A stretch of 64,000 nucleotides of DNA from an uncultured delta proteobacterium (GCA_903907985.1 CAIVQG010000041.1:1-64000), one strand, 5' to 3'; positions 1,520-23,720 are shown, counted from the stretch's first letter. Numbers and translations: made by a program. The notes: generated by a model from the letters alone, not told the origin.

Positions 1520-2212
1520 TTAATTCCAGAGTCCTTTAATCTGATCCCCTATTGCTTCGTCTGTTACGTCCGCATAAACCATCGTTGACTGAATCGAAAC
1601 ATGCCGAAGCTGCTTCTGCACAACTCGCAAATCTTTTTCCCGCGAATACAGTTCCACAGCATAAGAATGCCGCAGCGCATGAACTGATTTCCCTTTTTCG
1701 TAAAGTCCAAGCTGCCGCAGGTATTTTTTAACGATCTGCTGTATTGCCTGAGCTGTCCATCTTCCCCTTTGACCAATGAACAGAAAATCATCATCGCCAA
1801 TAGATTCGCCCAGCGTCTGTTTCCAGCTCAAAAACGTCTTTAAATGCTTTTTAAGCGCGTCGGGAATGATAACGTGACCAGATATATGCCCTTTACCGTC
1901 CCGCACAAATATCTTGCTTTCAGAATAACCGATCTTCAAATCACCGCACCGCAGATTTGCTGCCTCTGACACTCTGAGCCCTGTGCTTGTCAACAAATCA
2001 ATAACCAACCATTCTTTTATTCCAGTAACGTTTCCTTTCTTTTCATCGATTTCAGATTGATCCCGAACCGCACGCCTGATCATTTTTATCTGCTTATCAT
2101 TGAAGTACTTTACGCCGTCGATGTTTCTTACATTACCGCTGCCTCTTTTTGCCCTGCTTCGTTTCTTCGTGCTCGCAGGAAAATCTATTACCATTGCCAT
2201 TTCTGTACTCAT
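1520..2212 (-). CDS. Short tyrosine recombinase (integrase/resolvase type)
   Basis: 230-residue phage-integrase-family protein that would cut and rejoin DNA strands at specific sites. The full catalytic set is present: Arg80 (TGLRVSE), Lys107 in the beta-hairpin (DGKG), His178 and Arg181 (HALRHSY), His204 (LRHVS) and the nucleophile Tyr213 (MVYAD). It is shorter than usual (about 300-400 residues): the N-terminal core-binding domain is reduced to about 40 basic residues (KKRSRAKR). Such short forms are common on plasmids and conjugative elements. ATG 2212 has a strong site (AGGAGG, 8 nt). It diverges from the ParB-like gene, which suggests a plasmid-style maintenance module. No att site was found beside it. 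Confidence 0.88.
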   Translation of the reverse strand: MSTEMAMVIDFPASTKKRSRAKRGSGNVRNIDGVKYFNDKQIKMIRRAVRDQSEIDEKKGNVTGIKEWLVIDLLTSTGLRVSEAANLRCGDLKIGYSESKIFVRDGKGHISGHVIIPDALKKHLKTFLSWKQTLGESIGDDDFLFIGQRGRWTAQAIQQIVKKYLRQLGLYEKGKSVHALRHSYAVELYSREKDLRVVQKQLRHVSIQSTMVYADVTDEAIGDQIKGLWN

Positions 2213-4026: not shown

Positions 4027-4500
4027 ATGATTGTCAACTCTCATGAACGTATCTTATCCCATGTAACAATTGCGACCAATGAACCAATCAATAAAATAAT
4101 GGCAGCCTTGGAATATGGTGATATTGACACTGTGAAATCACTTCTTGATAGCGGCGCCGATATTGAAACTCAAGATAAAGATGGGAGGACGGCACTAATA
4201 TGGGCCGCATACCATGGCAATTACGAGATCATGGAATTATTGATTGATAGGGGTGCAGATATTAATGCTAAAGATCATTATGGATGGTCAGTCTTGATGG
4301 AGGCTGCATTTCACAATGACTCAGACGCGATGGATTTATTGATTTACAATGGTGCTGAATTTGATTCTAAAGACAATGAAGTATTAAACAGTCTATTGTT
4401 TGCAAGTGCCGATGGAGATCTTGAGTTGGTAAGGTTGTTGCTCAATGACAGTCATTTTGAAGCAGGGGTGAGGCCTAAGAGTGAAATCAAAGAATTCTGA
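4027..4500 (+). CDS. Ankyrin-repeat protein
   Basis: 157-residue soluble protein made almost wholly of ankyrin repeats. Repeats are visible as GADIETQDKDGRTALIWAA, GADINAKDHYGWSVLMEAA and a degenerate third and fourth copy (about residues 25-150). No signal peptide. Ankyrin repeats bind proteins; the partner cannot be read from sequence. The 3' end overlaps the next gene by 20 nt in another frame, so the two proteins are almost certainly co-translated and may act together. The start has only a weak GGAAAT site. Confidence 0.8.
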   Translation: MIVNSHERILSHVTIATNEPINKIMAALEYGDIDTVKSLLDSGADIETQDKDGRTALIWAAYHGNYEIMELLIDRGADINAKDHYGWSVLMEAAFHNDSDAMDLLIYNGAEFDSKDNEVLNSLLFASADGDLELVRLLLNDSHFEAGVRPKSEIKEF

Positions 4501-5212
4501 ACATATCTTGCAAGATAGTAGGAAGCGCGATGCCAAGGCAATCAATTCCTTGAAAAACAGAACTGTAGTGACAATAAAAGATGACACACAGGTTAGTTTC
4601 TCGTCGGACAATGCCATTGTAGCCTATCACCTTGATAAAGTAATGACTGATATTCTATCTAGCATTGCCAACAAATTGAAAGTCACTATTAGCTGGGCGG
4701 ATTGTGTAACCGATTTAATCGCTTTTCCGGCTTTCATGAACATCGTCAATCCCTTGAAGCTTACGGAAAAAGAGATGGACGAAGTATTCCAATGGTTTTC
4801 CTTTTTGGAAGAGACGGGTGACCCAAAAGGCCTGTGTATTCTTTTCACATCAGTACCGACTTTTAAGATACCCGCCAAAGTTAAAAAATATATTATCAAA
4901 ACCCCAGAAATCATCGATGGCGATTATCTGAAGTTAAAGATTCTAAATAAAAGGACTTCGGCTGCCAGGCACAAAAATCAACACCGGAGTTACGACCGTA
5001 AAATATTTCGTATTCTAAGTATTCTTAAGGTATTAAAAACGCAGAAGGTCATGCATATCGAAGATATGTGCAATGACTTCAATGTATGCCCGAAGACAAT
5101 AAAAAGAGACATCGACCTTTTGAACGCTCTGGGCGAAATCATTGAATATGACAAAGTAAAGAAAGGGTATGTCTTGTTGATGGAAGACGGAGCATACAGC
5201 CAACACCTCTGA
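4481..5212 (+). CDS. Protein with C-terminal winged helix-turn-helix domain
   Basis: 243-residue protein starting at GTG inside the end of the ankyrin gene. Residues about 1-170 match no family I recognise. Residues about 170-235 look like a DeoR/HTH_11-type winged helix: IEDMCNDFNVCPKTIKRDIDLL followed by a wing-like GYVLLMEDG. This kind of domain normally forms the N-terminus of WYL or DeoR regulators, so its C-terminal position here is unusual. It probably binds DNA and may regulate its own operon through the dyad at 3961-3976. Overlap with the ankyrin gene suggests translational coupling. An internal ATG at 4530 is an alternative start. Confidence 0.65.
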   Translation: MKSKNSEHILQDSRKRDAKAINSLKNRTVVTIKDDTQVSFSSDNAIVAYHLDKVMTDILSSIANKLKVTISWADCVTDLIAFPAFMNIVNPLKLTEKEMDEVFQWFSFLEETGDPKGLCILFTSVPTFKIPAKVKKYIIKTPEIIDGDYLKLKILNKRTSAARHKNQHRSYDRKIFRILSILKVLKTQKVMHIEDMCNDFNVCPKTIKRDIDLLNALGEIIEYDKVKKGYVLLMEDGAYSQHL

Positions 5213-5297: not shown

Positions 5298-5576
5298 ATG
5301 AAGAGATTAAAAGCAGGTAATCTTTGCCCCGAGTGTAACTTTGAAATGGTTGAAATAAGCCGAGAAACTTTTCAGAACATGAAAGTCTTTAAACCGAAAA
5401 TTAACTCCATTCCACAGAAGATTCAAAACAGCAAATCCGGTGTACTGGCTATTTGTCCCCAATGTGATGCATATGCCTTGGGAATAGACATGGAAAAGGG
5501 ATTCAGTTTTTTCGATAAAGGCGGTAATTTAACCGATATACACAAAATTAGTGACACATTTTGGAATAAACAATAG
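5298..5576 (+). CDS. Small two-CxxC (zinc-ribbon-like) protein
   Basis: 92-residue protein with two CPxC knuckles, Cys10/Cys13 and Cys53/Cys56, the spacing of a zinc ribbon. The start is supported by TAGGAGG nine nt before ATG. No catalytic motif or signal peptide. Small zinc-ribbon proteins often bind nucleic acid or act as adaptors. It is followed 59 nt later by the beta-CASP nuclease gene on the same strand and may be part of that operon. Exact function unknown. Confidence 0.7.
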   Translation: MKRLKAGNLCPECNFEMVEISRETFQNMKVFKPKINSIPQKIQNSKSGVLAICPQCDAYALGIDMEKGFSFFDKGGNLTDIHKISDTFWNKQ

Positions 5577-5635
5577 AGCCTGCGGTAAGAATTGTAATTA
5601 TTACCATTGCATAACAAAAGAAATGTGAGGAAACT

Positions 5636-6901
5636 TTGCTTAAAATAACAATTCATCGCGGCGCTCATGAAATAGGCGGTACCTGTATTCAACTCTCTAC
5701 ATCGAAAACTACGATCCTTCTGGATCTGGGTTTACCGTTGTCGGCGGAAAGCAAGAAAATTAATGTGGCCTCGTTCCAACCGGATGCGGTTTTAATCAGT
5801 CACCCTCATCAAGATCATTTTGGTCTTATCGAGAAACTGCCACCGGAAACACCGGTGTATCTCGGGAAATTGACCAAGGAACTTATTGATGCTACGCGAA
5901 TGTTTCTCGATATGCCTCTTTTCACAAACAACTTTAAATTTTATGAAAAGTGGCAACCATTCAACCTTGGCGATTTCAGGCTGACGGCCTACCTTGTGGA
6001 CCATTCAGCAGCAGATGCCTACGGGTTCCTAATCGAAGCCGAAGGTAAACGTCTTTTTTACAGCGGGGATTTCCGCGGGCATGGTAATAAAAACAAGTTG
6101 TTTCATAAAATGATTACCGATCCCCCAAGAGATATTGACCTGTTGTTTATGGAAGGGACAATGCTGGAAAGGAATAATAATGAATTTCCCCATGAGCGGG
6201 CTGTTCGGGATAAAATACAGAGGATTATAGCCCGGCAGGAGAATGTTTCATTTCTTATCTCATCCTCTCAAAACATTGACAGGCTTGTATCAGCCCATAA
6301 CGCCTGTGTTGCAAAGGGCAAAGTATTTGTTATTGATTTTTATACCGCATGGGTACTGGAAAAGGTAAAGGCTGTTTCCACGGGTATTAGCGCTTTTAAA
6401 TGGGATCATATCGCGGTGCTGGCAAGCGGATTCAAAAGTGGCCGACAATACAGCATAATGCAAAAGCAGCGTGGCAGATTAGGTTCTTTTATCAATAATG
6501 TATTTGACCACACCATTAAAGAAGAAGTTATCCGAGCCGATCCTTCACGTTATCTCGTTCTCGAAAAGGTTTCATCAGTGGGGCGACTTGTTGAATCATT
6601 CCGTGGCAACAAGCCGGTTAATGTCATCTACTCCCAGTGGCTCGGCTATCTTTCTCCCTCAAATGACGATCATCATGGAGCTAAAGCAATGGATGCTTAT
6701 AAGTGCGGAGACGTTCCCGGTGTTGATTTTCATTATGCCCACACCAGCGGCCATGCACCGGTTGAAGATTTGCAGAAGTATGCCGCAGCGCTAAAGCCGA
6801 AAATGCTGGTGCCGATTCATACGGAGTATGGAAACAAATTTAATGAACTGTTCGATTGTATTGTTCAAATAGCAGATAATCAAGTCTTTACATTGCAATG
6901 A
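5636..6901 (+). CDS. RNase J-like beta-CASP metallo-beta-lactamase hydrolase
   Basis: 421-residue metallo-beta-lactamase-fold protein. Metal-binding motifs appear in order: HPHQDH (about residue 59), a histidine in VDHS (about 122), the aspartate in SGDFRGH (about 140), and the late motifs HTSGHAP (about 377) and PIHTEYG (about 398), which match the beta-CASP/RNase J layout and suggest a zinc-dependent RNase or DNase. It lacks RNase J's C-terminal domain, so it is shorter (RNase J is about 550 residues). The start is TTG with GAGG upstream; no nearer ATG fits. The first 20 residues resemble the RNase J N-terminus (HRGAHEIGGTCIQL). It lies 16 nt before a PD-(D/E)XK-like gene and is probably in the same operon, which points to a nuclease cluster. 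Confidence 0.82.
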   Translation: MLKITIHRGAHEIGGTCIQLSTSKTTILLDLGLPLSAESKKINVASFQPDAVLISHPHQDHFGLIEKLPPETPVYLGKLTKELIDATRMFLDMPLFTNNFKFYEKWQPFNLGDFRLTAYLVDHSAADAYGFLIEAEGKRLFYSGDFRGHGNKNKLFHKMITDPPRDIDLLFMEGTMLERNNNEFPHERAVRDKIQRIIARQENVSFLISSSQNIDRLVSAHNACVAKGKVFVIDFYTAWVLEKVKAVSTGISAFKWDHIAVLASGFKSGRQYSIMQKQRGRLGSFINNVFDHTIKEEVIRADPSRYLVLEKVSSVGRLVESFRGNKPVNVIYSQWLGYLSPSNDDHHGAKAMDAYKCGDVPGVDFHYAHTSGHAPVEDLQKYAAALKPKMLVPIHTEYGNKFNELFDCIVQIADNQVFTLQ

Positions 6902-6917
6902 ATAAGGGAGGGTTATT

Positions 6918-7748
6918 ATGGTAAAAAAAGATATCTCTGAAACAGAAAGCCGCTTGCGTGATCGTCTTGATCGAATGAAGAAAATGGCTGATGAATTAAA
7001 CAAGCTTGAGATTGTCGAGCTTGCAAAGCTCGATAGATATATCCGCATTGGAGGAGAATCTTTTCGTGCAGTTTCATTAAGAGAAGATTATCCACTGTGT
7101 GGTTGTGCAAAAAGTGGCACTAGACAACTTGCCACTATTGATCGTCACTTCAAAAAATGTGAAGGAAAACTTCCTATGCACGTATTGGAAAAGAAAAAAG
7201 AGCGGAAGTTGCAATGTTGGATAATTAAACAATCACTCATCAACAACCGAAATATGATGATTTTTTTAAATAAAGCAAAGGGTTGCTTTGATGAACTTGT
7301 CTTTGCGTTAGATGAGGTGTCATTGGGAGACAAAAAAAATCCCGTGGCAAAAATTAACGGGCTTCGATTAAATGGCAGCCCAATGGCAGTTAGGTGCGAT
7401 CTGCTTGCGGTTGGCAGTAAGGATGGAAAAACATTCCCTGTATTAATCGAATTGAAGTCAAGCCGGAATAAGAAAGATTTGATTGCACAGATTGACAATT
7501 TTGCTGAACTTATCTGTCGGTTTAAAGACTGCTTTATACCCCTGCTCGAGACGTGTACTGGCTTGCAAATCAATGATTACAATCCGCGAAAAATAATTGT
7601 TTGGCCGACGCCACAGCAACAAAATTCCATAACCCAAAAACATCTAAACTTTCTCACCAATATTGGAATTAGTATCCTTGAATATAATGATAGCGTTGAA
7701 AACAATATAAGCTCGCGATATGTGTTTAACGCGCATTGGGCAAAATAA
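6918..7748 (+). CDS. Uncharacterised protein with PD-(D/E)XK nuclease-like motif
   Basis: 276-residue protein with no family I recognise. Residues 5-40 are a charged, coiled-coil-like helix. A possible metal site (C61-x-C63 with H77 and C81) follows. The central part carries a restriction-endonuclease-type signature: Asp161 (RCDLLAV), Glu178 and Lys180 (VLIELKSS), then Gln191, the order expected of a PD-(D/E)XK core. This implies a DNA or RNA nuclease, but the fold is inferred from a short motif. The start has GGGAGG 7 nt upstream and the gene follows the beta-CASP hydrolase by 16 nt. Confidence 0.62.
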   Translation: MVKKDISETESRLRDRLDRMKKMADELNKLEIVELAKLDRYIRIGGESFRAVSLREDYPLCGCAKSGTRQLATIDRHFKKCEGKLPMHVLEKKKERKLQCWIIKQSLINNRNMMIFLNKAKGCFDELVFALDEVSLGDKKNPVAKINGLRLNGSPMAVRCDLLAVGSKDGKTFPVLIELKSSRNKKDLIAQIDNFAELICRFKDCFIPLLETCTGLQINDYNPRKIIVWPTPQQQNSITQKHLNFLTNIGISILEYNDSVENNISSRYVFNAHWAK

Positions 7749-7835
7749 TTGCCGACATAATATTTTTATACACGAAATTAACTTCTGTATAGGTTTGAAT
7801 TTTAACGGCACTCTGGCCGAACATAGGAGGGAAGA

Positions 7836-8747
7836 ATGGAAATAAATAGACGTAATGGTTTCACCAGGCTTAAGGATAATCACCCACTCGTCGACAGTCT
7901 GCTCTCTGAATCGTGGTGGCATGAGATTGTAAAACTTTCACATACTGATCCGGATATCAGCATCCAACTCCGCTCGGATTCTATCAATGTTTACTCGAAA
8001 ATGGGAAGCCTGCTGAGGATAAGCCTACAGGGCAATAAAGTCTGTTGTGGGGTTCATTATAAGTACCTCGTTGCGAATGTGAAATCGCCTTATGAGAAGA
8101 TAGTCCCATCGAACGGACAACTTCTCGTGGAAAAAGACAATTTATGCCCCAATATCCGAGACATCCTAAAAAATATCAAGACCATCAAACAGAACATTGC
8201 TGTTTACACCGGAGAAGAAAAAGCGATTCAGTCCCGGCTCGTTGAGAAAAACAAAGAGACGATCGTCGATATAGAGGTGGCCTTCTCAGGAAAGTCTGTG
8301 CCGGATGATGTTGAGGGAGACAACGCCCGTATCGATTTTGTCAATTTTGATAAAAACATCCGGAAGCTTGTTTTCGTAGAGCTGAAGCAGGCTTTTGATG
8401 CAAGGCTCTATAACCAAGATATAAATGACCAGATAAAGAAATATTACGACTTCGCTCTAAAAAACGAAGGACAAATCATTAAAGCATATCAAGATTCCAT
8501 CAACACCAAAAAGAAGCTCGGAATCATAAAGACCACATCATTCCTTGCTGATGCTAAAATAGAGGCAATAGAGCCGCGTCCTATTCTTGCCATTGCAGGA
8601 TACAATCAAAATGTCATAGATGGGCTATCTGTAAAAATCAGAAAAAATATTTGTACCAAATATCTTGCAGGATTGTATTTTTTTGGCACTGACGTGGACC
8701 TCAATATACAAATGCGCAAACATCAAAACAAAGAAATATTTCTGTAA
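7836..8747 (+). CDS. Uncharacterised protein with second PD-(D/E)XK nuclease-like motif
   Basis: 303-residue protein without a recognised family. It shows another nuclease-like core: a helix with Glu132 and Gln132-region residues (EKAIQSRLVEKN), then Asp167 (RIDFVNF) and Glu182-Lys184 (FVELKQAF). Spacing D-14-E-x-K fits the PD-(D/E)XK superfamily and differs from that of the neighbour upstream, so this is not a simple duplicate. The N-terminal 100 residues are predicted mixed alpha/beta. ATG has GGAGGG 5 nt upstream. It lies 87 nt after the previous nuclease-like gene on the same strand. A nuclease role is an inference. Confidence 0.62.
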   Translation: MEINRRNGFTRLKDNHPLVDSLLSESWWHEIVKLSHTDPDISIQLRSDSINVYSKMGSLLRISLQGNKVCCGVHYKYLVANVKSPYEKIVPSNGQLLVEKDNLCPNIRDILKNIKTIKQNIAVYTGEEKAIQSRLVEKNKETIVDIEVAFSGKSVPDDVEGDNARIDFVNFDKNIRKLVFVELKQAFDARLYNQDINDQIKKYYDFALKNEGQIIKAYQDSINTKKKLGIIKTTSFLADAKIEAIEPRPILAIAGYNQNVIDGLSVKIRKNICTKYLAGLYFFGTDVDLNIQMRKHQNKEIFL

Positions 8748-8802
8748 AAAGCAACTCTCTGTTAATTGATTATTGAGACACAATAGAGGAGACAATATAT
8801 TC

Positions 8803-9138
8803 ATGAGTGAAATTGAATTCTGGATAGGCGTTGATCTGGATGGCACGCTGGCTGAATATCATGGCTGGATCGGAATCCATCATATCGGAAAGCCGATTAC
8901 GCCTATGGTTGAACGTGTTCAGCGTTGGATAGACGAAGGGAAGAAGGTCAAGATTTTCACTGCACGAGCTTCCGAAGGGACGGCAGCAATAGAATTCATT
9001 CACACCTGGCTTGAAAAGCAAGGTCTCCCAAAACTCGAAGTTACTAATGTCAAAGACTTCGGCATGACGGAACTTTGGGATGATCGCTGTATTTCGATAG
9101 GAACGAATACGGGTCAAATAAAACATCACACAGACTGA
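8803..9138 (+). CDS. Small HAD-family phosphatase-like protein
   Basis: 111-residue protein that begins with the HAD motif I, DLDGTLAEY (nucleophile and acid-base Asp, residues about 10-12), followed by a motif II-like segment KIFTARAS (about 48) and a late acidic pair (WDDR). Such short proteins occur in phages and islands and resemble the HAD fold of nucleotidases or polynucleotide-kinase phosphatase domains; the substrate is unknown. I take ATG at 8803, which has GAGGAGA 10 nt upstream, instead of the in-frame TTG at 8773. It ends 12 nt before the start of the DnaE-like gene, so the two are probably co-expressed. Confidence 0.72.
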   Translation: MSEIEFWIGVDLDGTLAEYHGWIGIHHIGKPITPMVERVQRWIDEGKKVKIFTARASEGTAAIEFIHTWLEKQGLPKLEVTNVKDFGMTELWDDRCISIGTNTGQIKHHTD

Positions 9139-9150
9139 TTGGAGAAAAAT

Positions 9151-10581
9151 ATGGCGAACGCAAAAGCCGATTTTGTCCATCTCCATGTTCACACAGAATA
9201 CAGCCTTCTTGACAGTACCTTGCGCCTTGGTGACCTATTTAAAAAGGCTAAAGAATATCAGATGCCGTCCATCGCCATGACTGATTATGGCAATCTCTTT
9301 GGCGCTATCCAATTTTATAAGCAGGCGCAAAAAGCCGGCATCAAACCCATTATCGGCTGTGAGTTGTATGTTGCTCCGAAAAGCAGGTTTGACAAGTCTT
9401 TTGCTGGTATTGAAGAATCTTCGCATAATCTTGTCGTTCTCGTCAAAAACTTGCAGGGATATAAGAATCTGCTGAAACTCTTATCGATTGGATATATAGA
9501 AGGTTTCTACTATCGCCCCCGGGTGGATAAGGAAATCCTTCAGTATCATCACGAAGGGCTTATCGCCATAAGTGCTTGTCTACATGGGGAAGTTTCTTCA
9601 TATATCTTGAAGGGTGATCACAGCGCCGCCGTCAAAGCTGCCCGCGCATACAAAAAAATGTTTGGTACAGAAAACTTCTATCTTGAAATCATGGAAAATG
9701 GTCTGCCTGAACAATGGGTTGTCAATGAAGGCATGATGGAAATCAGTCGTCTTCTATCCATTCCTGTTGTCGCCACCAATGATTGTCATTATCTTCATGC
9801 TGATGATGCAAAAGTTCATGAAGTGCTTCAGTGCATTCAGACTGGAAAAACCCTTAACGACAATAACCGGCTGCGTTCTAAAACGAATCAGTTTTATTTG
9901 CGATCACCGAGCGAAATGAAGCGTCTTTTTTCACATTGTCCAGAGGCAATTGCCAATACGGTCCTGATCGCGGATCAATGCAACCTATCTCTTGAATTAG
10001 ACTGTCCTCGTCCTTGCCAATTCCAATTGAAGGAAGGATGCATCCCTGATGAATACCTGGTAAAAAACGCTAACGAAAGAGTGAACGGAGTGCAATCCAC
10101 TATCGATACAGATTTTTCTCAGAAAGGGAGTGATTACATCATCCGCCATATCACAGAGAAATACGGTAGAAACCGTGTAGCAAAGATCATCACATTCAGA
10201 AAAATGAGGGCGAAATCTGCCATTCGTCATGTTGGTCATGCCATGCATCTTCCCTATGAAGATGTTAATGCCATCACAAAAATGGTTCCCACTATTCAGA
10301 ATATATCTCTGGAAGACGCTTTTAATATGGAACCTCGACTTAGAAAAGCAGCAAAAAAGAGCGAGAAGATACAAAAACTTTTATCCCTTTCTTGGGCGCT
10401 AAACGGTTTAATCATGCATTCATCAACCAGTACTGTTGGTATGGTCATTTCCGATAAGCCCCTTGTTGATATGGTTCCCTTATGTTCTGGTTCTGGGGGC
10501 GATATTGTTACCCAATACTCGATAACCGATCTCCAGAACATGGGGTTTTCGATACTCAAATTTCCCCATATTACAAGGTAA
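9151..10581 (+). CDS. PHP-domain protein derived from DNA polymerase III alpha (DnaE), polymerase-defective
   Basis: 476-residue protein matching the N-terminal half of DnaE. Residues about 5-280 are a PHP domain with most metal ligands in place (HLHVHT at 10-15, IIGCELY, SACLHGE, ATNDCHYL), although the usual TDH is TDY. From about residue 310 an internal deletion removes the GPGRGSAAGS region and joins directly to a palm piece (IDTDF, which keeps the D-x-D pair). The frame ends at LQNMGFSILKFPHITR, where the third catalytic aspartate (KMDFLG in DnaE) would stand. The fingers, beta-binding and OB domains are absent. DNA polymerisation is therefore very unlikely; a PHP nuclease or phosphoesterase role, or a decaying paralogue, remain possible. 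ATG 9151 has GGAG 7 nt upstream. Confidence 0.8.
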   Translation: MANAKADFVHLHVHTEYSLLDSTLRLGDLFKKAKEYQMPSIAMTDYGNLFGAIQFYKQAQKAGIKPIIGCELYVAPKSRFDKSFAGIEESSHNLVVLVKNLQGYKNLLKLLSIGYIEGFYYRPRVDKEILQYHHEGLIAISACLHGEVSSYILKGDHSAAVKAARAYKKMFGTENFYLEIMENGLPEQWVVNEGMMEISRLLSIPVVATNDCHYLHADDAKVHEVLQCIQTGKTLNDNNRLRSKTNQFYLRSPSEMKRLFSHCPEAIANTVLIADQCNLSLELDCPRPCQFQLKEGCIPDEYLVKNANERVNGVQSTIDTDFSQKGSDYIIRHITEKYGRNRVAKIITFRKMRAKSAIRHVGHAMHLPYEDVNAITKMVPTIQNISLEDAFNMEPRLRKAAKKSEKIQKLLSLSWALNGLIMHSSTSTVGMVISDKPLVDMVPLCSGSGGDIVTQYSITDLQNMGFSILKFPHITR

Positions 10582-10643: not shown

Positions 10644-11669
10644 TTAGATGCAGTTCAACGGAAGATAATGAGTATTCATTATACTCACATGGCTGCTGAT
10701 TTCTTTAATCAAAAAATCCGGGCTAATTAACTTTGCCTCTTTGCCAAATGATAAAACCCATGAAACCACTTCTGGTTCGGATGAAGTTGTAAATTCGAGA
10801 GCAATTCGGCCTTGGCTTTTTTTTGTAATTTTCTGGTCTGGACTCCACATTCTTTCCGAGATGTATTGTGCCGCCCATCCGGCAAATTCGACCTCTACTT
10901 TAAAAGCACGATTTTTGATTATTCCAAAATGTTTATTAAAAATCTTCTCAAAGTCATATTTTTCAGGCTGTTCATATTGCTTTTCAGTCATTTGGATTTT
11001 CTTAATTCTCTGAACGGCAAGCAATGGATCGTAATCCGGCGCCTCAAGCATTTTACCTGGTCTGCTTGATAATTTTGCATGAAGGTAAATAGTGTCCTTA
11101 TGTGAAAACAACTTCAGAGGCATAATACTGAATGTTTTAGCTTTAGTTTCAGTAATGGCTTGGTAGTTTACTTGACAAATCCTTCGCTGTTTCATGGCTT
11201 CAATAAGAGTGCAGATTGTGTCATGATGAGGCGTGTAATCTATTGTCCCTGTCCGGATTGTGGCAAAATGTTTATCGGAAGAATCTCCCTTTTTACCGGT
11301 TACTAAAGATTGACTTTTTAGCAGTGCAAGCGTTGCTTCCTCAAACAGCTGTTTTCCGAGAAGTTGAGAAGTAAAATCGCGGCACATCTGAAGAATGTTA
11401 AACTCTGTCTCCGAGATGGATGCTACTGATATTGCTCTTTCCGGACGTTTTATCCGATAGTAATGCCGGTTTCCCACCTGTGACAATTCTATTCTTAAAC
11501 CATAGCCTTTCTCGATATCGTCAATAAGGCGAATTACCGTTTGCTTTGAACATTCCAGCATTTCGGATAGCTCTGTCAGAGAATAGCTTTCACCTGAAAA
11601 CAGAAGCTTCACAAACAACCTTATCAATTTTTCACCGTAACTTTGATACATACTCTTTTTTCCACCCAT
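10644..11669 (-). CDS. WYL-domain transcriptional regulator
   Basis: About 341 residues, transcribed leftward. The N-terminus holds a helix-turn-helix (SLTELSEMLECSKQTVIRLIDDIEKGYGL, about residues 24-52). The middle and C-terminal parts match WYL proteins: a beta-sheet region with IMPLKLFSHKDTIYLHAK and a WCX-like tail. WYL domains bind ligands, often single-stranded DNA or nucleotides, and repress defence genes (for example BrxR and CapW). I chose ATG at 11669 because AGGGGGC lies upstream; a frame extension to 11822 would overlap the divergent promoter. The gene diverges from a three-gene module, with a perfect palindrome (11741-11758) between them, the expected place for autoregulation. 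Confidence 0.82.
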   Translation of the reverse strand: MGGKKSMYQSYGEKLIRLFVKLLFSGESYSLTELSEMLECSKQTVIRLIDDIEKGYGLRIELSQVGNRHYYRIKRPERAISVASISETEFNILQMCRDFTSQLLGKQLFEEATLALLKSQSLVTGKKGDSSDKHFATIRTGTIDYTPHHDTICTLIEAMKQRRICQVNYQAITETKAKTFSIMPLKLFSHKDTIYLHAKLSSRPGKMLEAPDYDPLLAVQRIKKIQMTEKQYEQPEKYDFEKIFNKHFGIIKNRAFKVEVEFAGWAAQYISERMWSPDQKITKKSQGRIALEFTTSSEPEVVSWVLSFGKEAKLISPDFLIKEISSHVSIMNTHYLPLNCI

Positions 11670-11740
11670 ATTTAGCCCCCTAGGAAAATCGTGTGATTCT
11701 ATGGAACGATAACATATTATAGTGCTACCAAACAAGGGAA

Positions 11741-11758
11741 ATGCATTTATGAATGCAT
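11741..11758. promoter_or_regulatory. ATGCATT-4-AATGCAT palindrome, candidate WYL operator
   Basis: Perfect inverted repeat with 7-bp arms and a 4-nt centre (TATG), halfway between the divergent WYL gene and the small gene starting at 11779, and just before that gene's ribosome binding site. This is the usual place for an operator controlling both directions. Confidence 0.45.
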
Positions 11759-11778
11759 CCCCAAAAAAGGAGGTCATT

Positions 11779-12054
11779 ATGTCCTGCGAAAATTGTCTTA
11801 ACCTAAAGGTAAAAATGTTCACTTTTGGAGATCTGAGGAAGAAATGGAATGAAATCTATTCGCCTGATTCAATGACGGAAGGTTATGAAAAAAGGCTCAG
11901 GAGAGAGTCACTGAAACAAAATAAACCTTTTGAAAGGACAAGGCTCAAATTTATTTATTGCTCTAAAGGTATGCTGAATCGCTTTTACATTATTCGCGGT
12001 CATTCAATTATAAAGACTAAACCGGGAATGCAAGGTTGTCAATTTTATTTGTAA
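11779..12054 (+). CDS. Small protein of unknown function, first gene divergent from the WYL regulator
   Basis: 91-residue basic protein. Start chosen at ATG 11779 because of a very strong ribosome binding site (AAAGGAGG, 5 nt); the frame continues upstream but would run through the palindrome. Two cysteines at the N-terminus (CENC) could bind metal. The rest is rich in Lys and Arg (KRLRRESLKQNK) and may contact nucleic acid. No family recognised. It is followed after 13 nt by the Tat-signal protein gene. Confidence 0.6.
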   Translation: MSCENCLNLKVKMFTFGDLRKKWNEIYSPDSMTEGYEKRLRRESLKQNKPFERTRLKFIYCSKGMLNRFYIIRGHSIIKTKPGMQGCQFYL

Positions 12055-12564: not shown

Positions 12565-13338
12565 ATGAAAGAAATTGATTTCATTTTTAACGATGATGTC
12601 GTGAAGCAGCTTGGCAGAAATATGAACTATGAAGAATGCGAGGTTGTTCGCATTTTCTGGCCTATCTATTACCTCTATCGCATGTATCGCCTCCTCAGTT
12701 TAATATTGGATAAAAAGCATACACCGGAGGAATACGACAAGATGGGGATCTTTCATCTCGAAATCGAAGCTGACCTGCCAGTCTATCATCTCATCCATGC
12801 AATTATGCTTAACAAGATAAAAAGAGTTGAAAGAATTCTGAGAAAGGCAGAAATTGAATTGGATCATGATCTATCAAAAACAGCAGTTGCCTGGAGATTA
12901 GGTAAGGGAAACTGGAGACAAATGTACAACTATACTTTCCTGAGTATAGCGACAATATTAGGCAGAAAAGAAATATTCAAACTGCTTATTAATAAAGGGG
13001 CTGATCCTGGAAATTTAATCAGATTATCCGGAATGTATCCGGCTCCAATTTCACTGTCGGTAAATGAATGTTTAATTATGAACGAAATGTTTCACTGGTA
13101 TAAGACGGGTAAAAAGATGAAGCTCAAGGAACCACAGGTTAATGCCTTACTTGATGCCATAATTCTGGCCAGTCAGAAAAGCCCTTCTATTGTTTCCAAT
13201 GAACGACTGGCAGACCCAATAATAAGAGTCGCCCTGTATTGGTACTGGTTGAAGGATACGGTAAAAGATGCTAGACAACTTAAGTGCCTTATTCCTCTGA
13301 ATCCTTTGGCTATGAAGGAAATTCTCAGCATTGCATAG
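12565..13338 (+). CDS. Ankyrin-like helical-repeat protein
   Basis: 257-residue soluble, mostly helical protein. One ankyrin-like repeat is clear (TFLSIATILGRKEIFKLL then INKGADPGN, about residues 132-158), with weaker helical pairs before and after it (PVYHLIHAIMLNKIKRVERIL). No catalytic motif. It follows the Tat-signal gene by 14 nt, as the third gene in the module divergent from the WYL regulator. It may act as a binding or scaffolding partner; the repeat count is too low to be sure of a full ankyrin domain. A perfect 18-bp palindrome lies just after its stop. Confidence 0.65.
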   Translation: MKEIDFIFNDDVVKQLGRNMNYEECEVVRIFWPIYYLYRMYRLLSLILDKKHTPEEYDKMGIFHLEIEADLPVYHLIHAIMLNKIKRVERILRKAEIELDHDLSKTAVAWRLGKGNWRQMYNYTFLSIATILGRKEIFKLLINKGADPGNLIRLSGMYPAPISLSVNECLIMNEMFHWYKTGKKMKLKEPQVNALLDAIILASQKSPSIVSNERLADPIIRVALYWYWLKDTVKDARQLKCLIPLNPLAMKEILSIA

Positions 13339-14233: not shown

Positions 14234-14998
14234 ATGCCAGAACAAAAAGTTATTGGGAAAATCAATATTGAACATTATCCTTTAGAATCTAATGATATGC
14301 AGAGGATAATCCTAGAGACAGTTAATGAATTTGTATTCTCTGATTTTCAGGATAATAACTATCCCTTCCACTATCTTTACGAAGCCGACATTCAGGCTCA
14401 TCTGGCCTGCAAAATATCTCAACGAATAAAAAACCAAATAATCTTTTCTGTTTTGCCTGATAAAGATAAGAAATATAGCCTGACGCCAATAACACGCGAG
14501 TATCCATTAGGTATGAGACATGATATCGTTTGTATCAACCCATTCAAACTACAACAATATGTAAACTGGAAATTGGAAGAAGGTAAGCCATTTAAATTCA
14601 GCCAAATCATGTGGGAATTGCCACTTCTCGTAGGTATAGAAATCAAATACAGTCTTTTTGGTTATACATTACACATTAACGAATCAGGCAATGATGATAG
14701 AAATAAACTGATTCGGTATAAAAATGGGTCCGGTGAAAATAGCAACTATCACGAAGAAAGAAATACGAAAATTGAACGAAGCGATGAATCTAAATTATTT
14801 ACTGAGCAGTTTAAGCATCTTTCAATAATGTTTTTTCAAGATAAGGACTGGTTTAATGATCACAGATCCGAATTAAAAAATGAAACCTTCCTGTTAAAAA
14901 AAGAATCTCCCATTCGAGATGCAAAGACAATAGAATATGATGGAGTTTACATGGTTGGTCCAGATAAACAGGTATTCAGCTATAATGTAGAGAACTGA
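14234..14998 (+). CDS. Uncharacterised protein with third PD-(D/E)XK nuclease-like motif
   Basis: 254-residue protein with no named family recognised. It shows the full PD-(D/E)XK order: helix with Glu50 (YEADIQAHL), Asp97 (RHDIVCI) and Glu136-Lys138 (VGIEIKYS). The central core is followed by a charged segment (about 150-190) and a mixed C-terminus. It resembles type-II-restriction-fold proteins found next to other nucleases. ATG has AGGAG 7 nt upstream. The next gene, a Cas4-like/DEDD fusion, starts 2 nt after its stop, so they are almost surely co-translated and may form one complex. Confidence 0.65.
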   Translation: MPEQKVIGKINIEHYPLESNDMQRIILETVNEFVFSDFQDNNYPFHYLYEADIQAHLACKISQRIKNQIIFSVLPDKDKKYSLTPITREYPLGMRHDIVCINPFKLQQYVNWKLEEGKPFKFSQIMWELPLLVGIEIKYSLFGYTLHINESGNDDRNKLIRYKNGSGENSNYHEERNTKIERSDESKLFTEQFKHLSIMFFQDKDWFNDHRSELKNETFLLKKESPIRDAKTIEYDGVYMVGPDKQVFSYNVEN

Positions 14999-15000
14999 CT

Positions 15001-16488
15001 ATGCAAGAGATATCAACATTTCTAAGCAAATCACTTTTTATTCGCGGATTGCAGTGTCATAAATCACTTTATCTGCAAAAGTACAGGCCTGAATTGAAGG
15101 ATGCCATCACAGATGAAAAGGACAAGCTTTTCAGCGGTGGAAACGAAGTAGGCATCCTGGCACATGATCTGTTTCCAAGTGGCTCCGAAGTCCCTTATGA
15201 AGGTTTATCATATCAGGAGCAACTAGAATTAACGGAGTCATTAATAAAGCAAGGTCATCATACAATTTACGAAGCTGCTTTCCAATATGCAGGAGTATTT
15301 ATAAAGGCGGATATTCTTCATTTAGGTAAAGATGGATGGGAAATATACGAAGTTAAGGCATCAACAGCGGTAAAAGATTATCAGGTTCACGATGCTGCTG
15401 TTCAGTACCATGTATTGTCCGGCATTAATCTGCCAGTATCAAAAATATATCTCGTGCATATAAACAATCAATATGTCCGAAGCGGCGATATTGAAGTTGA
15501 TAAGCTTTTTTCTAAAGTAGATGTCACTGAGACTGCTAAAAAAAAGCAAGCCTTCATCGCCACTGAACTTAAAAAGCAACGTGATATGCTTAATGGCAAT
15601 GAACCAGTCATCGGTATCGGTCCACATTGTTATGATCCTTATGAATGTGATTTTAAAGGACACTGCTGGAGGGATCTTCCCAAAGATTCAATATTTGATA
15701 TCCGTGGCCGATTGAATAATAAATATTCTCTCTACGAACAAGGTGTCACATCAATGTATGAAGTTTCTCCTGAATTTTTGTCAGTAACTCAATCCATGCA
15801 GATAGAAGCAAACAGAACTAAGCAGATTTTTTATGATCATCGTGCAGTAAATGGTTTTCTCAAAAACTTCTGGTATCCAATATATTTCTTGGATTTTGAG
15901 ACTTTCATGACAGCTATACCAACTTTCGATGGAATAAGGCCATATCAGCAAATCCCGTTTCAATATTCCCTGCATTATATTGAACACGAAGGAGGCGATT
16001 TAAAACATCATGAATTTCTGGCACGGCCAAATACAGACCCAAGGGAAGAATTGATCAATAAACTGATTATTGAAATACCGGATAATGCATGTGTAGTTGC
16101 CTATAACAAATCTTTTGAAATAGGCGTCTTAAAAATTCTTGCTGAGCAATATCCTCAGCATAAAAAACAAATTGATGAAATTATTGAAAACATGAAGGAT
16201 CTCATGGAGCCATTCCGGCGCAAGGAAATTTACCACTGGCAACAAAATGGATCATATTCATTAAAAGAAGTTCTTCCTGCTATGCTGCCAGAATTCAGTT
16301 ATGATAATTTGGACGTTCGAGATGGCGGGATGGCTATGCAATCATATGCTACCATGAATCAAATTGATGATCCCAATGAAATAGAAAACATCCGTAAAGC
16401 GCTTCTAGAGTATTGCGCTTTAGACACACTGGCGATGGTAAAGATTTTTGAAAAATTGAAAAACAATGACTTCAAGGAATCAAGCTAA
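15001..16488 (+). CDS. DUF2779-type fusion: Cas4-like Fe-S nuclease plus DEDD exonuclease
   Basis: 495-residue two-domain protein. Residues 1-225 look like a Cas4/RecB nuclease: Cys19 and a C-terminal cluster Cys210, Cys216, Cys222 that can hold a 4Fe-4S centre, with His55, Asp104, Glu117-Lys119 (YEVKAS) and Gln135 as the PD-(D/E)XK site. Residues about 290-490 are a DUF2779/RNase H-like exonuclease with Asp298 and Glu300 (FLDFET), an Asn-containing AYNKSFE, Asp400 and Asp475 (CALDTL), the DEDD pattern. Both active sites look intact. Such proteins are thought to process DNA or RNA ends; the exact substrate is unknown. It follows the third nuclease-like gene by 2 nt. Confidence 0.82.
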   Translation: MQEISTFLSKSLFIRGLQCHKSLYLQKYRPELKDAITDEKDKLFSGGNEVGILAHDLFPSGSEVPYEGLSYQEQLELTESLIKQGHHTIYEAAFQYAGVFIKADILHLGKDGWEIYEVKASTAVKDYQVHDAAVQYHVLSGINLPVSKIYLVHINNQYVRSGDIEVDKLFSKVDVTETAKKKQAFIATELKKQRDMLNGNEPVIGIGPHCYDPYECDFKGHCWRDLPKDSIFDIRGRLNNKYSLYEQGVTSMYEVSPEFLSVTQSMQIEANRTKQIFYDHRAVNGFLKNFWYPIYFLDFETFMTAIPTFDGIRPYQQIPFQYSLHYIEHEGGDLKHHEFLARPNTDPREELINKLIIEIPDNACVVAYNKSFEIGVLKILAEQYPQHKKQIDEIIENMKDLMEPFRRKEIYHWQQNGSYSLKEVLPAMLPEFSYDNLDVRDGGMAMQSYATMNQIDDPNEIENIRKALLEYCALDTLAMVKIFEKLKNNDFKESS

Positions 16489-20407: not shown

Positions 20408-21595
20408 TTATATTTGACTATGAACAATCCTTTTTTTATCAAAAGCTTTTTCAAGATTCAGCGTCGCCTGCCTCTTGTGCTCCGGCATTAAGTGAGCGTA
20501 CCGTACAGTCATGGCAAGTGTCTTATGACCGAGAAGTTCTTTGATTGTCAAGATAGTTTCTCCCTGCAATGCGAGCCATGAAGCAAATGTATGTCTGAGC
20601 GTATGAAATGTGACCTTCTGCCGTGGGTCAGTAATGCCTTCGTTGAATTTAAGCTTATCAATTGTTTTCCCAAATGTGTGAGAGATAGATGTTATTTTGC
20701 CACCATGCCTTTTGTCCCTAAAAATATATTCGTTCGGAGATTCAGGAACACGCTTTGACAGAGCTTCTTTAACAGCTTCCGTCATATATGCTTTGCGGCT
20801 TTCCTTGTTTTTAGGGTCAGATATATTGATTAGCTTGTTGTCGAAATCGAGGTCTTGACCTTTGAGGTTGAATATCTCTCCAGCTCTTAATCCGCAATGA
20901 AGAGAGATTAAAGCCATGTCATGGAGCTGAGCGTCTTTCTTTTCGGTAAGATTCTTTTTCACAGATTTCTTTCTGCTGCTATAATCAACTTTAAGTTCAT
21001 TTAGAAGTAGAGAGGCTTCATCATATCTGAGGAAACGTTCACGCTGGTTTTGTAGATTAGGAAGCTTGATACCTTTGATCGGATTTTCTCCATTATACAT
21101 TTTCCACAAGATGGCTTTATTGAAAATCTGACGGAATAAGACAAGACAATGTTTTACGCTACCAGCAGTAAGTTTCTTTTTCGTGAGGTTGGTTTTCAGA
21201 CGCTCCAAATCGAATGACGAAATCTCATTTAATCGCTTGTCATCAAAAATAGCCGCAAGATGATTTTTGTACAGATATTTATCGTCACGACCTTCCCGCG
21301 TCTTATTTTGTGACGCCCATTTAAGATAGTCTTCCGCAACATCTTTAAAGTAAGGAACTTTCTGCTTATCTTTCGGAAGCTCCTCTCCATGACGAATATT
21401 CCTGATCCTGTTTGACCTAATCTCGGAAGCAACTTTAGCTGCATAACCTTCACTGAGCCAACCGACTTTCTCCCATACTTTCTTTCCATCGAGCCTGTAA
21501 GTTATATCAAAGCAACTGTCAGCTTTACCGTTGTGCATTCGCGCATCGGATTTCCTTTCGTAGACACCGGAGTATTTTGTCAGCTCTCTTTTCAT
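20408..21595 (-). CDS. int: Tyrosine integrase of the tRNA-Thr-integrated element
   Basis: About 395-residue integrase that would recombine the element with its tRNA target. An N-terminal arm-binding region (ITYRLDGKKVWEKVGW) and a SAM-like core domain (about residues 80-170) lead to the catalytic domain with Arg (HCGLRAGEI), the His-x-x-Arg box (HTLRHTFASWLA), a second His (LLGHKTLAMT) and the nucleophile Tyr (VRYAHL), all present. I take ATG at 21595 (AGGG 5 nt upstream); in-frame ATGs at 21625 and 21649 are possible. The tRNA-Thr 3' fragment lies 150 bp upstream of the start, as expected for an int next to its att site. Confidence 0.9.
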   Translation of the reverse strand: MKRELTKYSGVYERKSDARMHNGKADSCFDITYRLDGKKVWEKVGWLSEGYAAKVASEIRSNRIRNIRHGEELPKDKQKVPYFKDVAEDYLKWASQNKTREGRDDKYLYKNHLAAIFDDKRLNEISSFDLERLKTNLTKKKLTAGSVKHCLVLFRQIFNKAILWKMYNGENPIKGIKLPNLQNQRERFLRYDEASLLLNELKVDYSSRKKSVKKNLTEKKDAQLHDMALISLHCGLRAGEIFNLKGQDLDFDNKLINISDPKNKESRKAYMTEAVKEALSKRVPESPNEYIFRDKRHGGKITSISHTFGKTIDKLKFNEGITDPRQKVTFHTLRHTFASWLALQGETILTIKELLGHKTLAMTVRYAHLMPEHKRQATLNLEKAFDKKRIVHSQI

Positions 21596-21991
21596 TGCTA
21601 CCCTATTGCTACCCCTTTCGGTCATTCTGAGTGATTTTAAGTGATACAAGTATTTTTACAAATGATGCATAACATACTTAATTTAAAAGCATATTGATGT
21701 CAAGTGATTTATAGTGAGATGAGTCAGTTTTGCATAAAAACGTATTCGTAATCAGTAGGTCGCCAGTTCGATTCTGGCCATCGGCTCCAGTAAAATTCAA
21801 TAGGTTAGTTAATATCAGACAATTCCTTTCCTTCCATTTGTAACCAAATTGCGTGTGGGGAAACGGGATCGAATATTTACCTTTGACATTTGCAAGGTTT
21901 CAAAATGCTTGAAACGCAATCAGGTTTTCTAGCAGTGTGCATCCATTGAATACAGGCAGCCGCATGGTATCATCGTATAAAGAGGTGAATA
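21596..21991. other. Element border region with att site, no gene
   Basis: About 396 bp between the integrase start and the TfoX-like gene. It contains the 46-bp tRNA-Thr 3' fragment (21744-21789). The DNA to the right of the fragment is not coding for about 200 bp. Nothing else is recognised. Confidence 0.5.
21744..21789 (+). other. att site: 3' fragment of tRNA-Thr(CGT)
   Basis: These 46 bp match the anticodon loop with anticodon CGT (ATTCGTAATC), the variable region, the T-arm (GCCAG-TTCGATT-CTGGC), the acceptor strand CATCGGC and a terminal TCCA. The 5' half of a tRNA is absent upstream. Integrases of this type insert into the 3' end of tRNA genes, which leaves an intact tRNA at one end and such a fragment at the other. 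Reading direction implies that the intact tRNA lies left of the window start. Confidence 0.85.
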
Positions 21992-22321
21992 ATGGCCTAC
22001 GATAAAGGATTGGCCCAGAGAGTTCGCGAAATAATGGAGGAAGAGCCGGGATTTGATGAGAAGAAAATGTTCGGCGGATGGTGCTTTTTGCTTTTCGGCA
22101 ACATGGTCTGCGGCATTATCAAGGAAGACCTGATTGTGCGGGTCGGCGCGGACAGGTATGCCGATATGCTGAAGATGCCTCATACGAAAAAATTTGATCT
22201 TACCGGCAGGCCGATGAAAGGCTGGGTGATGGTTTTATCCGACGCGCTGGATTCTGACGAAGAACTAAACGAGTGGGTGCAGCAAGCAGTATCTTTTGTT
22301 CGAACACTGCCGCCGAAGTAA
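21992..22321 (+). CDS. TfoX N-terminal-domain family protein
   Basis: 109-residue protein matching the TfoX_N domain, with the typical VREIMEEEPGFDEKKMFGGWCFLLFGNMVCGI and the later RVGADRYADML (about residues 50-60). TfoX_N proteins include competence regulators, but most stand-alone members, like this one, lack the C-terminal helical domain and have unknown function. ATG has AGAGGTG 5 nt upstream. First gene to the right of the element border, with base composition like that of the chromosome. Confidence 0.85.
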   Translation: MAYDKGLAQRVREIMEEEPGFDEKKMFGGWCFLLFGNMVCGIIKEDLIVRVGADRYADMLKMPHTKKFDLTGRPMKGWVMVLSDALDSDEELNEWVQQAVSFVRTLPPK

Positions 22322-22526
22322 CGTATATCGTTAGGCATATTTGATCACAAAAGCCAAGCTGGCGACTGAAAGTTCAAGAGGAATACTTCCATGGGGCATA
22401 ACGGCCTTACGCCTGCATTGCCTCGGTACGCGAGGGCAAACATAGCGATAATATCGAAAAGATGAAGCTACAAAATTAAACATAAAACAATTTCATTTAG
22501 TGTTTCGGGATCATAAAAAACCAGGC

Positions 22527-22588
22527 GACTATTACGCAACGCCTTGCATAATAGTCTTGACTTTTACGCAATGTCCTGCTAAATAGTC
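22527..22588 (+). repeat. Two 30-bp direct repeats immediately upstream of the DUF4143 ATPase
   Basis: Copies at 22527-22556 and 22559-22588 share GACT-T/A-TTACGCAA and end in AATAGTC; they differ at about seven positions. The first copy is also an inverted repeat (GACTATTA/TAATAGTC). The second ends 4 nt before the ATG, and no Shine-Dalgarno sequence is visible. They could be an operator or an RNA element controlling this gene. Confidence 0.7.
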
Positions 22589-22592
22589 AGCC

Positions 22593-23720
22593 ATGAAACG
22601 CTATCTTTACGATTCGATAAAAAAAGATTTGCAGAAGAAGATGGTTATTCTGACCGGGCCACGGCAAGTCGGTAAAACCTGGCTGGCCAAGGCACTACTG
22701 GATGAATTCAAGTCCCCTCAATACCTGAACTTTGATAATATGGCCGATGCGAAGATTATCAATACGCAGTCATGGCCTGTCCAAAGTGATCTGCTCATCT
22801 TTGATGAAATTCACAAAAAGCCGGAATGGAAAAAATTTATCAAAGGTGTCTTTGACACTCGTGCAAAAAATCAAGCCATGCTGATTACCGGCAGCGCAAG
22901 ACTGGATACATTCCGGCAATCCGGCGAATCACTAGCCGGACGTTATTACCCGATGCGGCTTAATCCGCTTTCCGTACGTGAACTTAAGGATTCCGTCGGG
23001 CCTGACGAAGCCTTGGCGCTTCTGAACCGGCTGGGTGGATTCCCGGAACCTTTTTTATCCGGTTCGGATACAGAAGCAGCCCGCTGGCGTAATCAATATT
23101 ATACGGACTTGATCCGGGAAGATATTCTGGAATTCGGCAGGCTGCAGGAAGTACGTTCCATGCGGCTGTTACTGGAACTGTTGCGCTCTAGGGTCGGATC
23201 ACCAGTTTCGTATACGTCGATCGCACAGGATATCCAAATAGCTCCCAATACGGTACGCCGATATGTCGATATCCTGGAAAGTCTTTGTATCGTGTTTACC
23301 GTGCGGCCCTTCCATACCAATGTGGCCAGGGCCATTCTGAAAGAACCGAAACTGTATTTTTATGACAGCGGCTTTGTGCAGGGCGGTGAAGGAATCCAGC
23401 TGGAAAATACCTGCGCGGTATGTCTGTTAAAACATGCTCAGTACTTGCAAGATATTACCGGCGAAGATATTGAATTGAACTACATCAAAACGAAAGACGG
23501 CAAGGAAGTTGACTTTTCACTCAGCCGAAAAGGAAAGGCAACGCATCTCATCGAGGTGAAAGTCTCCGATGATTCCCCTTCCGCTTCACTGGTTCTGTTT
23601 GCCAGGAAACTGCCGGAAGCAAACGCCATTCAACTTGTGCAAAATCTGCGGCACGAACAGCAGAAAGATAGCATCGCTATTATCAGTGCCGGCAAATGGC
23701 TGGCACAATTGTCTGCCTGA
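22593..23720 (+). CDS. AAA+ ATPase with C-terminal DUF4143 domain
   Basis: 375-residue protein of the AAA_14 plus DUF4143 group. Walker A is GPRQVGKT (22-29), Walker B LLIFDE (68-72), with a sensor-like GSARLD at about 97-102. The C-terminus has a PD-(D/E)XK-like end (EVDFSLSRKG...LIEVKVS, about 305-330), as in many DUF4143 members. The family is widespread, poorly understood and often mobile. No Shine-Dalgarno is seen; two 30-bp repeats abut the start. The nucleotidyltransferase gene follows by 16 nt, but a functional link is not obvious. Confidence 0.88.
   Translation: MKRYLYDSIKKDLQKKMVILTGPRQVGKTWLAKALLDEFKSPQYLNFDNMADAKIINTQSWPVQSDLLIFDEIHKKPEWKKFIKGVFDTRAKNQAMLITGSARLDTFRQSGESLAGRYYPMRLNPLSVRELKDSVGPDEALALLNRLGGFPEPFLSGSDTEAARWRNQYYTDLIREDILEFGRLQEVRSMRLLLELLRSRVGSPVSYTSIAQDIQIAPNTVRRYVDILESLCIVFTVRPFHTNVARAILKEPKLYFYDSGFVQGGEGIQLENTCAVCLLKHAQYLQDITGEDIELNYIKTKDGKEVDFSLSRKGKATHLIEVKVSDDSPSASLVLFARKLPEANAIQLVQNLRHEQQKDSIAIISAGKWLAQLSA

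What the first reader, a model, noticed from the sequence alone, without database searches (positions are those of the whole stretch)
5298..8747. Operon of a zinc-ribbon protein, a beta-CASP nuclease and two unrelated PD-(D/E)XK-like proteins
Four closely spaced rightward genes: two-CxxC protein, RNase J-like hydrolase with all metal motifs, and two unknown proteins each showing D...ExK nuclease signatures with different spacing (D161/E178/K180 and D167/E182/K184). They lie inside an integrated element. Several different nuclease folds in one operon is a hallmark of defence or DNA-processing systems, and I know of no named system with this composition.
Basis: partly seen in the sequence, partly recalled or inferred. 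Interest (0 to 1): 0.75.

Follow-up and report, generated by a model that had tools for sequence, protein, structure and literature searches.

The report
Two-nuclease module with swappable partner gene
A mobile piece of bacterial DNA carries an RNA-cutting-type enzyme gene that, across many bacterial phyla, is almost always paired with a DNA-cutting-type enzyme gene that is repeatedly swapped for a different one, which suggests a so far undescribed bacterial system against invading DNA or viruses.

Summary
The genes are real and intact. The conserved unit is not the four-gene operon. It is a pair: a ~415-aa beta-CASP metallo-hydrolase with all metal motifs, plus a 220-350-aa PD-(D/E)XK protein next to it or fused to it. 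The pair was found in about ten phyla, on plasmids and in a few viral contigs: about 50 of 53 loci with enough flank hold it. The partner belongs to at least six families that BLAST does not join, and it changes 22 times on the beta-CASP tree. Nearly identical beta-CASP genes (89-96%) carry different nucleases, with DNA similarity stopping and restarting at gene boundaries. The window holds two such cassettes in tandem; relatives at the same position hold only the first, only the second, or a third kind. AlphaFold models of both proteins (pLDDT 82) show the restriction-endonuclease core. The zinc-ribbon gene is local. Best reading: an exchangeable-effector nuclease module, probably defence against mobile elements. 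Function and target are inferred. PADLOC, NCBIfam, Pfam and the open-access papers searched name no such pair.

The parts
4481..5212 (+). HTH (DeoR/WYL-type) regulator, probable regulator of the operon
   Evidence: HTH_DeoR 7e-7; 66-76% identical gene at the same place upstream of the beta-CASP gene in L002 and L003
5298..5576 (+). small two-CxxC protein (zinc-ribbon-like), accessory or unrelated
   Evidence: no family over its cut-off; found only in this window; the same slot holds another small gene (c8) in L002, L003, L013
5636..6901 (+). beta-CASP metallo-beta-lactamase-fold nuclease, constant component (TTG start)
   Evidence: Pfam Lactamase_B_2 and RMMBL; all metal motifs and the His of motif C invariant in 39 homologues; nearest solved chain 2az4 EF2904 1.2e-30, then RNase J
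6918..7748 (+). p3: PD-(D/E)XK nuclease-like protein, exchangeable cassette 1
   Evidence: AlphaFold2 pLDDT 82.0, pTM 0.86; top matches EndoMS Z 7.5, NucS 7.2, XisH 6.4, BsmI 6.2, SduA 6.1; E95, E133, D161, E178, K180 invariant
7836..8747 (+). p4: PD-(D/E)XK nuclease-like protein with a frataxin/YdhG-like N-terminal domain, exchangeable cassette 2
   Evidence: AlphaFold2 pLDDT 82.5, pTM 0.83; residues 126-303 match Upx Z 9.2, SduA 6.8, NucS 6.8; residues 10-133 match YdhG/frataxin folds Z 6.8; D145, E147, D167, E182, K184 invariant
8803..9138 (+). HAD-type phosphatase-like protein (ORF opens at TTG 8773; the conserved start is ATG 8803)
   Evidence: PHROG polynucleotide kinase 2.3e-8; 89% identical gene in L003; fused to the beta-CASP C-terminus in L016; also in L086; conserved start context GGAGACAAYATWTT-ATGAG
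9139..10581 (+). DnaE remnant: PHP domain plus part of the palm, missing the GPGRGSAAGS region and the third catalytic Asp
   Evidence: PHP 2.1e-57 and DNA_pol3_alpha 1.2e-33; the own genome has a separate full-length DnaE, 49-56% identical; same deletion and same C-terminal end in L003; DnaE-derived ORFs at 9 related loci
10644..11822 (-). WYL/WCX transcription regulator, neighbour
   Evidence: WCX 3.2e-11, WYL 1.1e-5; WYL genes also in 9 of 109 neighbours of other loci
20408..21649 (-). tyrosine integrase near the right end of the low-GC element
   Evidence: Phage_integrase 6.4e-27; GC rises from ~37% to ~47% at about 22 kb
1520..2212 (-). second, shorter tyrosine recombinase
   Evidence: Phage_integrase 6.9e-26

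Best explanation
The window carries one example of a mobile, modular nuclease system. Shown: a constant beta-CASP enzyme is paired with one PD-(D/E)XK protein, and the nuclease gene is replaced as a cassette between conserved flanking genes; here two cassettes stand in tandem. Inferred: the two proteins act together as a restriction-like defence against invading nucleic acid. The PD-(D/E)XK protein recognises and cuts the target, with its family-specific N-terminal domain giving specificity. The beta-CASP enzyme, which has the RNase J/CPSF-type motif C histidine, degrades or processes the products or transcripts as an RNase J-like nuclease. HAD or calcineurin-like phosphatases and catalytically crippled DnaE/PHP pieces are accessories at some loci, perhaps end-processing enzymes or sensors and decoys of the replication machinery. 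Swapping the nuclease would change target range or escape phage inhibitors while the partner stays. Confidence: pair and cassette exchange ~0.95; both proteins catalytic nucleases ~0.8; defence against mobile elements ~0.6; this division of labour ~0.3.
For: Pairing: 46/53 loci with >1.2 kb on both sides by motif, plus L006 (507-aa partner, over the length filter), L051 (hidden ORF), L089 (opposite strand) and L073 (fused, broken core), so ~50/53. Fusions: beta-CASP-p3 in L002, beta-CASP with another PD-(D/E)XK family in L074, L075, L076, beta-CASP-HAD in L016. Exchange: partner family changes 22 times on the beta-CASP tree (least possible 6); L022 vs L027 is 87.5% over the beta-CASP gene, nothing over the partner, 92.7% from the first base of the next gene; L020 vs L023 beta-CASP 96.4%, partner 26.7%; W vs L003 similarity stops at 6882 and resumes at 8788; W vs L002 stops at 7793 and resumes at 8788. 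Where the partner is not swapped it evolves at the rate of the beta-CASP (L020/L021 93.0 vs 97.5%, L023/L026 94.7 vs 93.6%), so variety comes from replacement. Patchy spread: 14/395 genomes of the phylum. Mobility and defence context: plasmids, one copy beside Eco57I R-M genes, one beside two DUF262 genes, one beside Tn3/Tni genes; WYL regulators in 9/109 neighbours against 41 WYL matches in 30 whole genomes.
Against: No experiment, and no phage target or spacer-like clue. PADLOC hits to the core proteins are only weak (PDC-S02 2.7e-5 for p4). A p4-type gene occurs without beta-CASP in L102 and, between transposases, in L101, so the pair is not strictly obligate. Beta-CASP without partner in L055 and L085. 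Only 7 viral contigs. The role of the DnaE remnant is unexplained. The L002 and L075 fusions run through what look like Shine-Dalgarno codons, so separate translation is possible there (L002 DNA).
Confidence: 0.55

Rival explanations
1. Toxin-antitoxin-like or addiction module: the variable PD-(D/E)XK protein is a toxic nuclease and the constant beta-CASP enzyme (or a small neighbour) controls it, which keeps the element in the host.
For: Small operon on plasmids and elements, exchangeable toxic-looking part, patchy spread.
Against: An intact p4-type gene exists without a beta-CASP gene in L102; beta-CASP and nuclease are fused in several genomes; all beta-CASP metal motifs are invariant, which a mere antitoxin would not need; the constant and variable roles are the reverse of what one expects if the antitoxin must match its toxin.
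Confidence: 0.15
2. DNA or RNA repair/processing module of the mobile element (replication, end processing, RNA repair), not defence: nuclease, phosphatase and DnaE/PHP pieces process nucleic acid ends.
For: HAD phosphatase fused to the beta-CASP, metallophosphoesterases and DnaE pieces nearby, PHROG polynucleotide kinase hit, closest folds include the repair enzymes NucS/EndoMS.
Against: DnaE pieces lack polymerase residues; accessory genes vary from locus to locus; wholesale swapping of the nuclease fits conflict better than housekeeping repair.
Confidence: 0.2
3. Two independent genes that often share hitch-hiking islands: the beta-CASP and the PD-(D/E)XK genes are just common cargo placed side by side.
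For: Both superfamilies are common in mobile elements; a few loci have one without the other.
Against: About 50/53 adjacency, same strand in nearly all, both orders and fusions; swap breakpoints sit between the two genes while flanks are kept.
Confidence: 0.05

Closest known systems
Shedu (SduA, DUF4263)
   Same: PD-(D/E)XK core with E..D..ExK; p4 core matches E. coli SduA 8ps4 Z 6.8 over 142 residues, p3 Z 6.1; weak SduA_C profile match 20.1 bits
   Different: below SduA_C cut-off (27); other N-terminal domains; here tied to a beta-CASP enzyme
Type VII CRISPR-Cas effector Cas14 (beta-CASP)
   Same: beta-CASP nuclease used in a prokaryotic interference system (PMC10910872, PMC12669027); NCBIfam cas14 model 1.7e-12
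   Different: 46.5 bits against a cut-off of 800; no Cas10-like C-terminal domain in this 421-aa protein; no Cas5/Cas7 among the ten genes scanned; partner is a PD-(D/E)XK protein
RNase J / short beta-CASP EF2904 (2az4)
   Same: fold and all metal and beta-CASP motifs; 2az4 E 1.2e-30, RNase J 1e-21
   Different: TIGR00649 59.1 bits against a cut-off of 400; ~130 aa shorter than RNase J; linked to a nuclease gene
Defence systems with exchangeable effectors (CBASS, Lamassu, type III CRISPR ancillary nucleases; from general knowledge)
   Same: constant component with swappable effector cassette; Can2/Card1 are PD-(D/E)XK and appear among structural matches
   Different: the swapped part here always keeps the PD-(D/E)XK motif; no cyclase, SMC or CARF component seen

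Membership tests
beta-CASP nuclease superfamily | HxHxDH, downstream H and D, beta-CASP motifs A (D/E), B (H), C (H/V) | tested here: met
   H56-x-H58-x-D60-H61, H123, D145, E173, H373, H395 invariant in 39 sequences
PD-(D/E)XK superfamily (p3, p4) | alpha-beta-beta-beta-alpha-beta core with D..(D/E)xK on the central strands | tested here: met
   AlphaFold2 models and VIA matches dominated by this superfamily; Z mostly 5-9, Foldseek E-values weak
Shedu SduA | SduA_C/DUF4263 domain above the curated cut-off | tested here: not met
   p4 20.1 bits, cut-off 27; p3 no hit
RNase J | RNase J family model above cut-off, C-terminal domain | tested here: not met
   TIGR00649 59.1 of 400 bits
Type VII CRISPR-Cas | Cas14 model above cut-off, with Cas5 and Cas7 genes | tested here: not met
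   46.5 of 800 bits; no Cas5/Cas7 hit among 10 neighbouring proteins
Named defence systems of PADLOC-DB 2.0.0 | profile hits to the system's core proteins | tested here: not met
   no PADLOC hit for the beta-CASP protein at E<1 and only weak candidate-family hits for p3 and p4; newer collections not available here
anti-phage defence system (functional class) | protects cells against phage or plasmid | not testable with these tools
   needs a phage-challenge experiment

The most novel reading that the evidence does not exclude
A so far undescribed defence system: a constant beta-CASP ribonuclease-type core whose target range is set by exchangeable PD-(D/E)XK cassettes (singly, in tandem or fused), with accessory phosphatases and inactive DnaE pieces that monitor or mimic the replication machinery.
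Probability: 0.4. Interest if true: 0.8.

Novelty: new variant of a known kind. Interest (0 to 1): 0.62.

Why it matters
It turns an odd operon into a defined, testable two-part module found in about ten phyla, with sharp predictions (which residues, which partner, which swap). If it is defence, it adds the beta-CASP family as a constant partner of restriction-type nucleases and gives a natural series of near-identical loci that differ only in the nuclease gene, ideal for asking what sets target specificity. The recurrent inactive DnaE pieces raise the question whether such systems watch the replication fork.

Tried and rejected
Four-gene conserved unit: rejected, the zinc-ribbon gene is unique to the window and p3/p4 alternate. 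'Unrelated' p3 and p4: rejected. First loose motif scan was uninformative (48/218 controls positive) and was replaced by a stricter one. Viral-contig scans with p3 and p4 found nothing; with the beta-CASP alignment 7 loci. PDB sequence search with the p4 alignment found nothing. Phage records: only distant beta-CASP relatives. Open-access papers: no beta-CASP + PD-(D/E)XK pair found. Element ends: no direct repeat of 13 or more bases between 1-2700 and 21500-22700, no tRNA gene.

Full report
What is there. The four ORFs named in the finding are real, intact and on one strand. The beta-CASP protein (5636-6901) has the RNase J-like metal motifs; in an alignment of 39 relatives from many phyla HPHQDH, H123, D145, E173 (motif A), SGH373 (motif B) and PIH395 (motif C) are invariant. 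From general knowledge of the family, a histidine at motif C is typical of RNA-acting members. Its nearest solved relatives are EF2904 (2az4, 1.2e-30) and RNase J (about 1e-21), with type VII Cas14 far behind.

The two unknown proteins. p3 has no Pfam match and p4 only sub-threshold ones (SduA_C 20.1 bits, YhcG_C). AlphaFold2 models are confident (p4 82.5/0.83; p3 82.0/0.86). For p3 nearly all structural matches are PD-(D/E)XK enzymes (EndoMS/NucS, XisH, BsmI, PaqCI, SduA, Can2). For p4 the C-terminal half matches Upx (Z 9.2), SduA and NucS (6.8), and the N-terminal part a frataxin/YdhG-like fold. These Z values are middling and Foldseek E-values are weak, so the case rests on the match list being dominated by one superfamily together with the invariant residues at the right places. 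Profiles of p3 and p4 match each other over the core (4.9e-5; 6.8e-4 with other rows), and iterated profile searches join them.

The pair is the unit. A scan of 84,980 genomes with the beta-CASP protein gave 47 loci, the phylum sample 14 of 395 genomes, plasmids and viral contigs more. Nearly everywhere a 220-350-aa gene sits directly after or before it. Under a strict motif 46 of 53 loci with enough flank have such a partner; four more have one that the filter missed, so about 50 of 53. Adjacent ORFs carry the motif in 54/92 cases against 13/194 controls. Partners fall into at least six families (p3, p4, c6, c10, c29, d1); p3, p4 and, via iterated profiles, c29 with c6 are linked, so these look like deep branches of one superfamily. 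Fusions: L002 (699 aa, beta-CASP-p3), L074-L076 (beta-CASP with the d1 family), L016 (beta-CASP-HAD).

Cassette exchange. On a tree of 59 beta-CASP domains the partner family changes 22 times where 6 would suffice; the labels are still more clustered than shuffled ones. The DNA shows how: L022 and L027 are 87.5% identical across the beta-CASP gene, share nothing over the partner, and are 92.7% identical again from the start of the next gene; L020 and L023 share a 96.4% identical beta-CASP with unrelated partners. At the window's own locus the order HTH - small gene - beta-CASP - [nuclease] - HAD - DnaE remnant is shared with L003 (nuclease c6); L002 has p3 and the start of the HAD gene before its contig ends, and L086 has p4, HAD and a DnaE trace. 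The window's p3+p4 is therefore a tandem of two alternatives. Where partners are not swapped they evolve at the pace of the beta-CASP protein, so the variety comes from replacement and not from fast drift.

Accessories. The HAD-like gene 8803-9138 was cut off the finding but belongs to the conserved flank and is fused to the beta-CASP in Campylobacterota. The next gene is a DnaE derivative: PHP domain kept, the GPGRGSAAGS region deleted and the end reached before the third catalytic Asp; L003 has the same deletion. The genome has its own complete DnaE. DnaE-derived ORFs lie near the beta-CASP gene at nine loci (W, L003, L015, L017, L019, L024, L057, L085, L086), and in L019 the PHP part is fused to a small 'GIFW' domain that itself recurs at 12 loci. 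One of the nine, L057, lies on a plasmid next to dnaX and may be plasmid replication genes.

Function. WYL regulators are frequent neighbours (9/109 scanned ORFs; genome baseline 41 matches in 30 genomes); one plasmid copy lies beside Eco57I-type R-M genes, one beside two DUF262 genes, one beside Tn3/Tni genes. The pair is rare and patchy. Together with a swappable nuclease this fits defence or inter-element conflict better than housekeeping. The split of work between the two enzymes is inference. A toxin-antitoxin reading is weakened by an intact p4-type gene without beta-CASP (L102) and by the fusions.

Novelty. No Pfam, NCBIfam, PADLOC (2023) or PHROG family names the pair, and searches of the open-access literature found none. 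Subscription papers and newer defence catalogues could not be checked.

Noticed in passing
window 9139-10581; L003:3872-5308, L015:2485-3453, L017:7819-8760, L019:9459-10730, L024:4333-6678, L085:6929-8008: Truncated or internally deleted DnaE (DNA polymerase III alpha) derivatives without the full set of catalytic residues recur next to the beta-CASP/nuclease pair.
   Followed up: partly
L018, L028, L032, L038, L049, L050, L051, L055, L005, L008, L019, L085: A ~110-aa domain ('VGIFW...PRGR') without a Pfam or PHROG match in the copy scanned (L051) recurs near the pair; in L019 it is fused to a DnaE-derived PHP domain.
   Followed up: partly
L004, L007, L052, L054: Calcineurin-like phosphoesterase genes recur near the pair, next to or a gene or two away.
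   Followed up: partly
L020, L021, L022, L027: A ~136-aa protein (c7) follows the nuclease in Bacteroidota whatever the nuclease family is; no Pfam match for the copy scanned (L022).
   Followed up: partly
window 14234-16488: A DUF2779 / RNase H-like protein (15001-16488) with an unnamed 254-aa protein before it in the same element; DUF2779 genes also lie near the beta-CASP loci L028, L038 and L091.
   Followed up: no
window 4027-4500 and 12565-13338: Two ankyrin-repeat proteins on the element flank the operon region.
   Followed up: no
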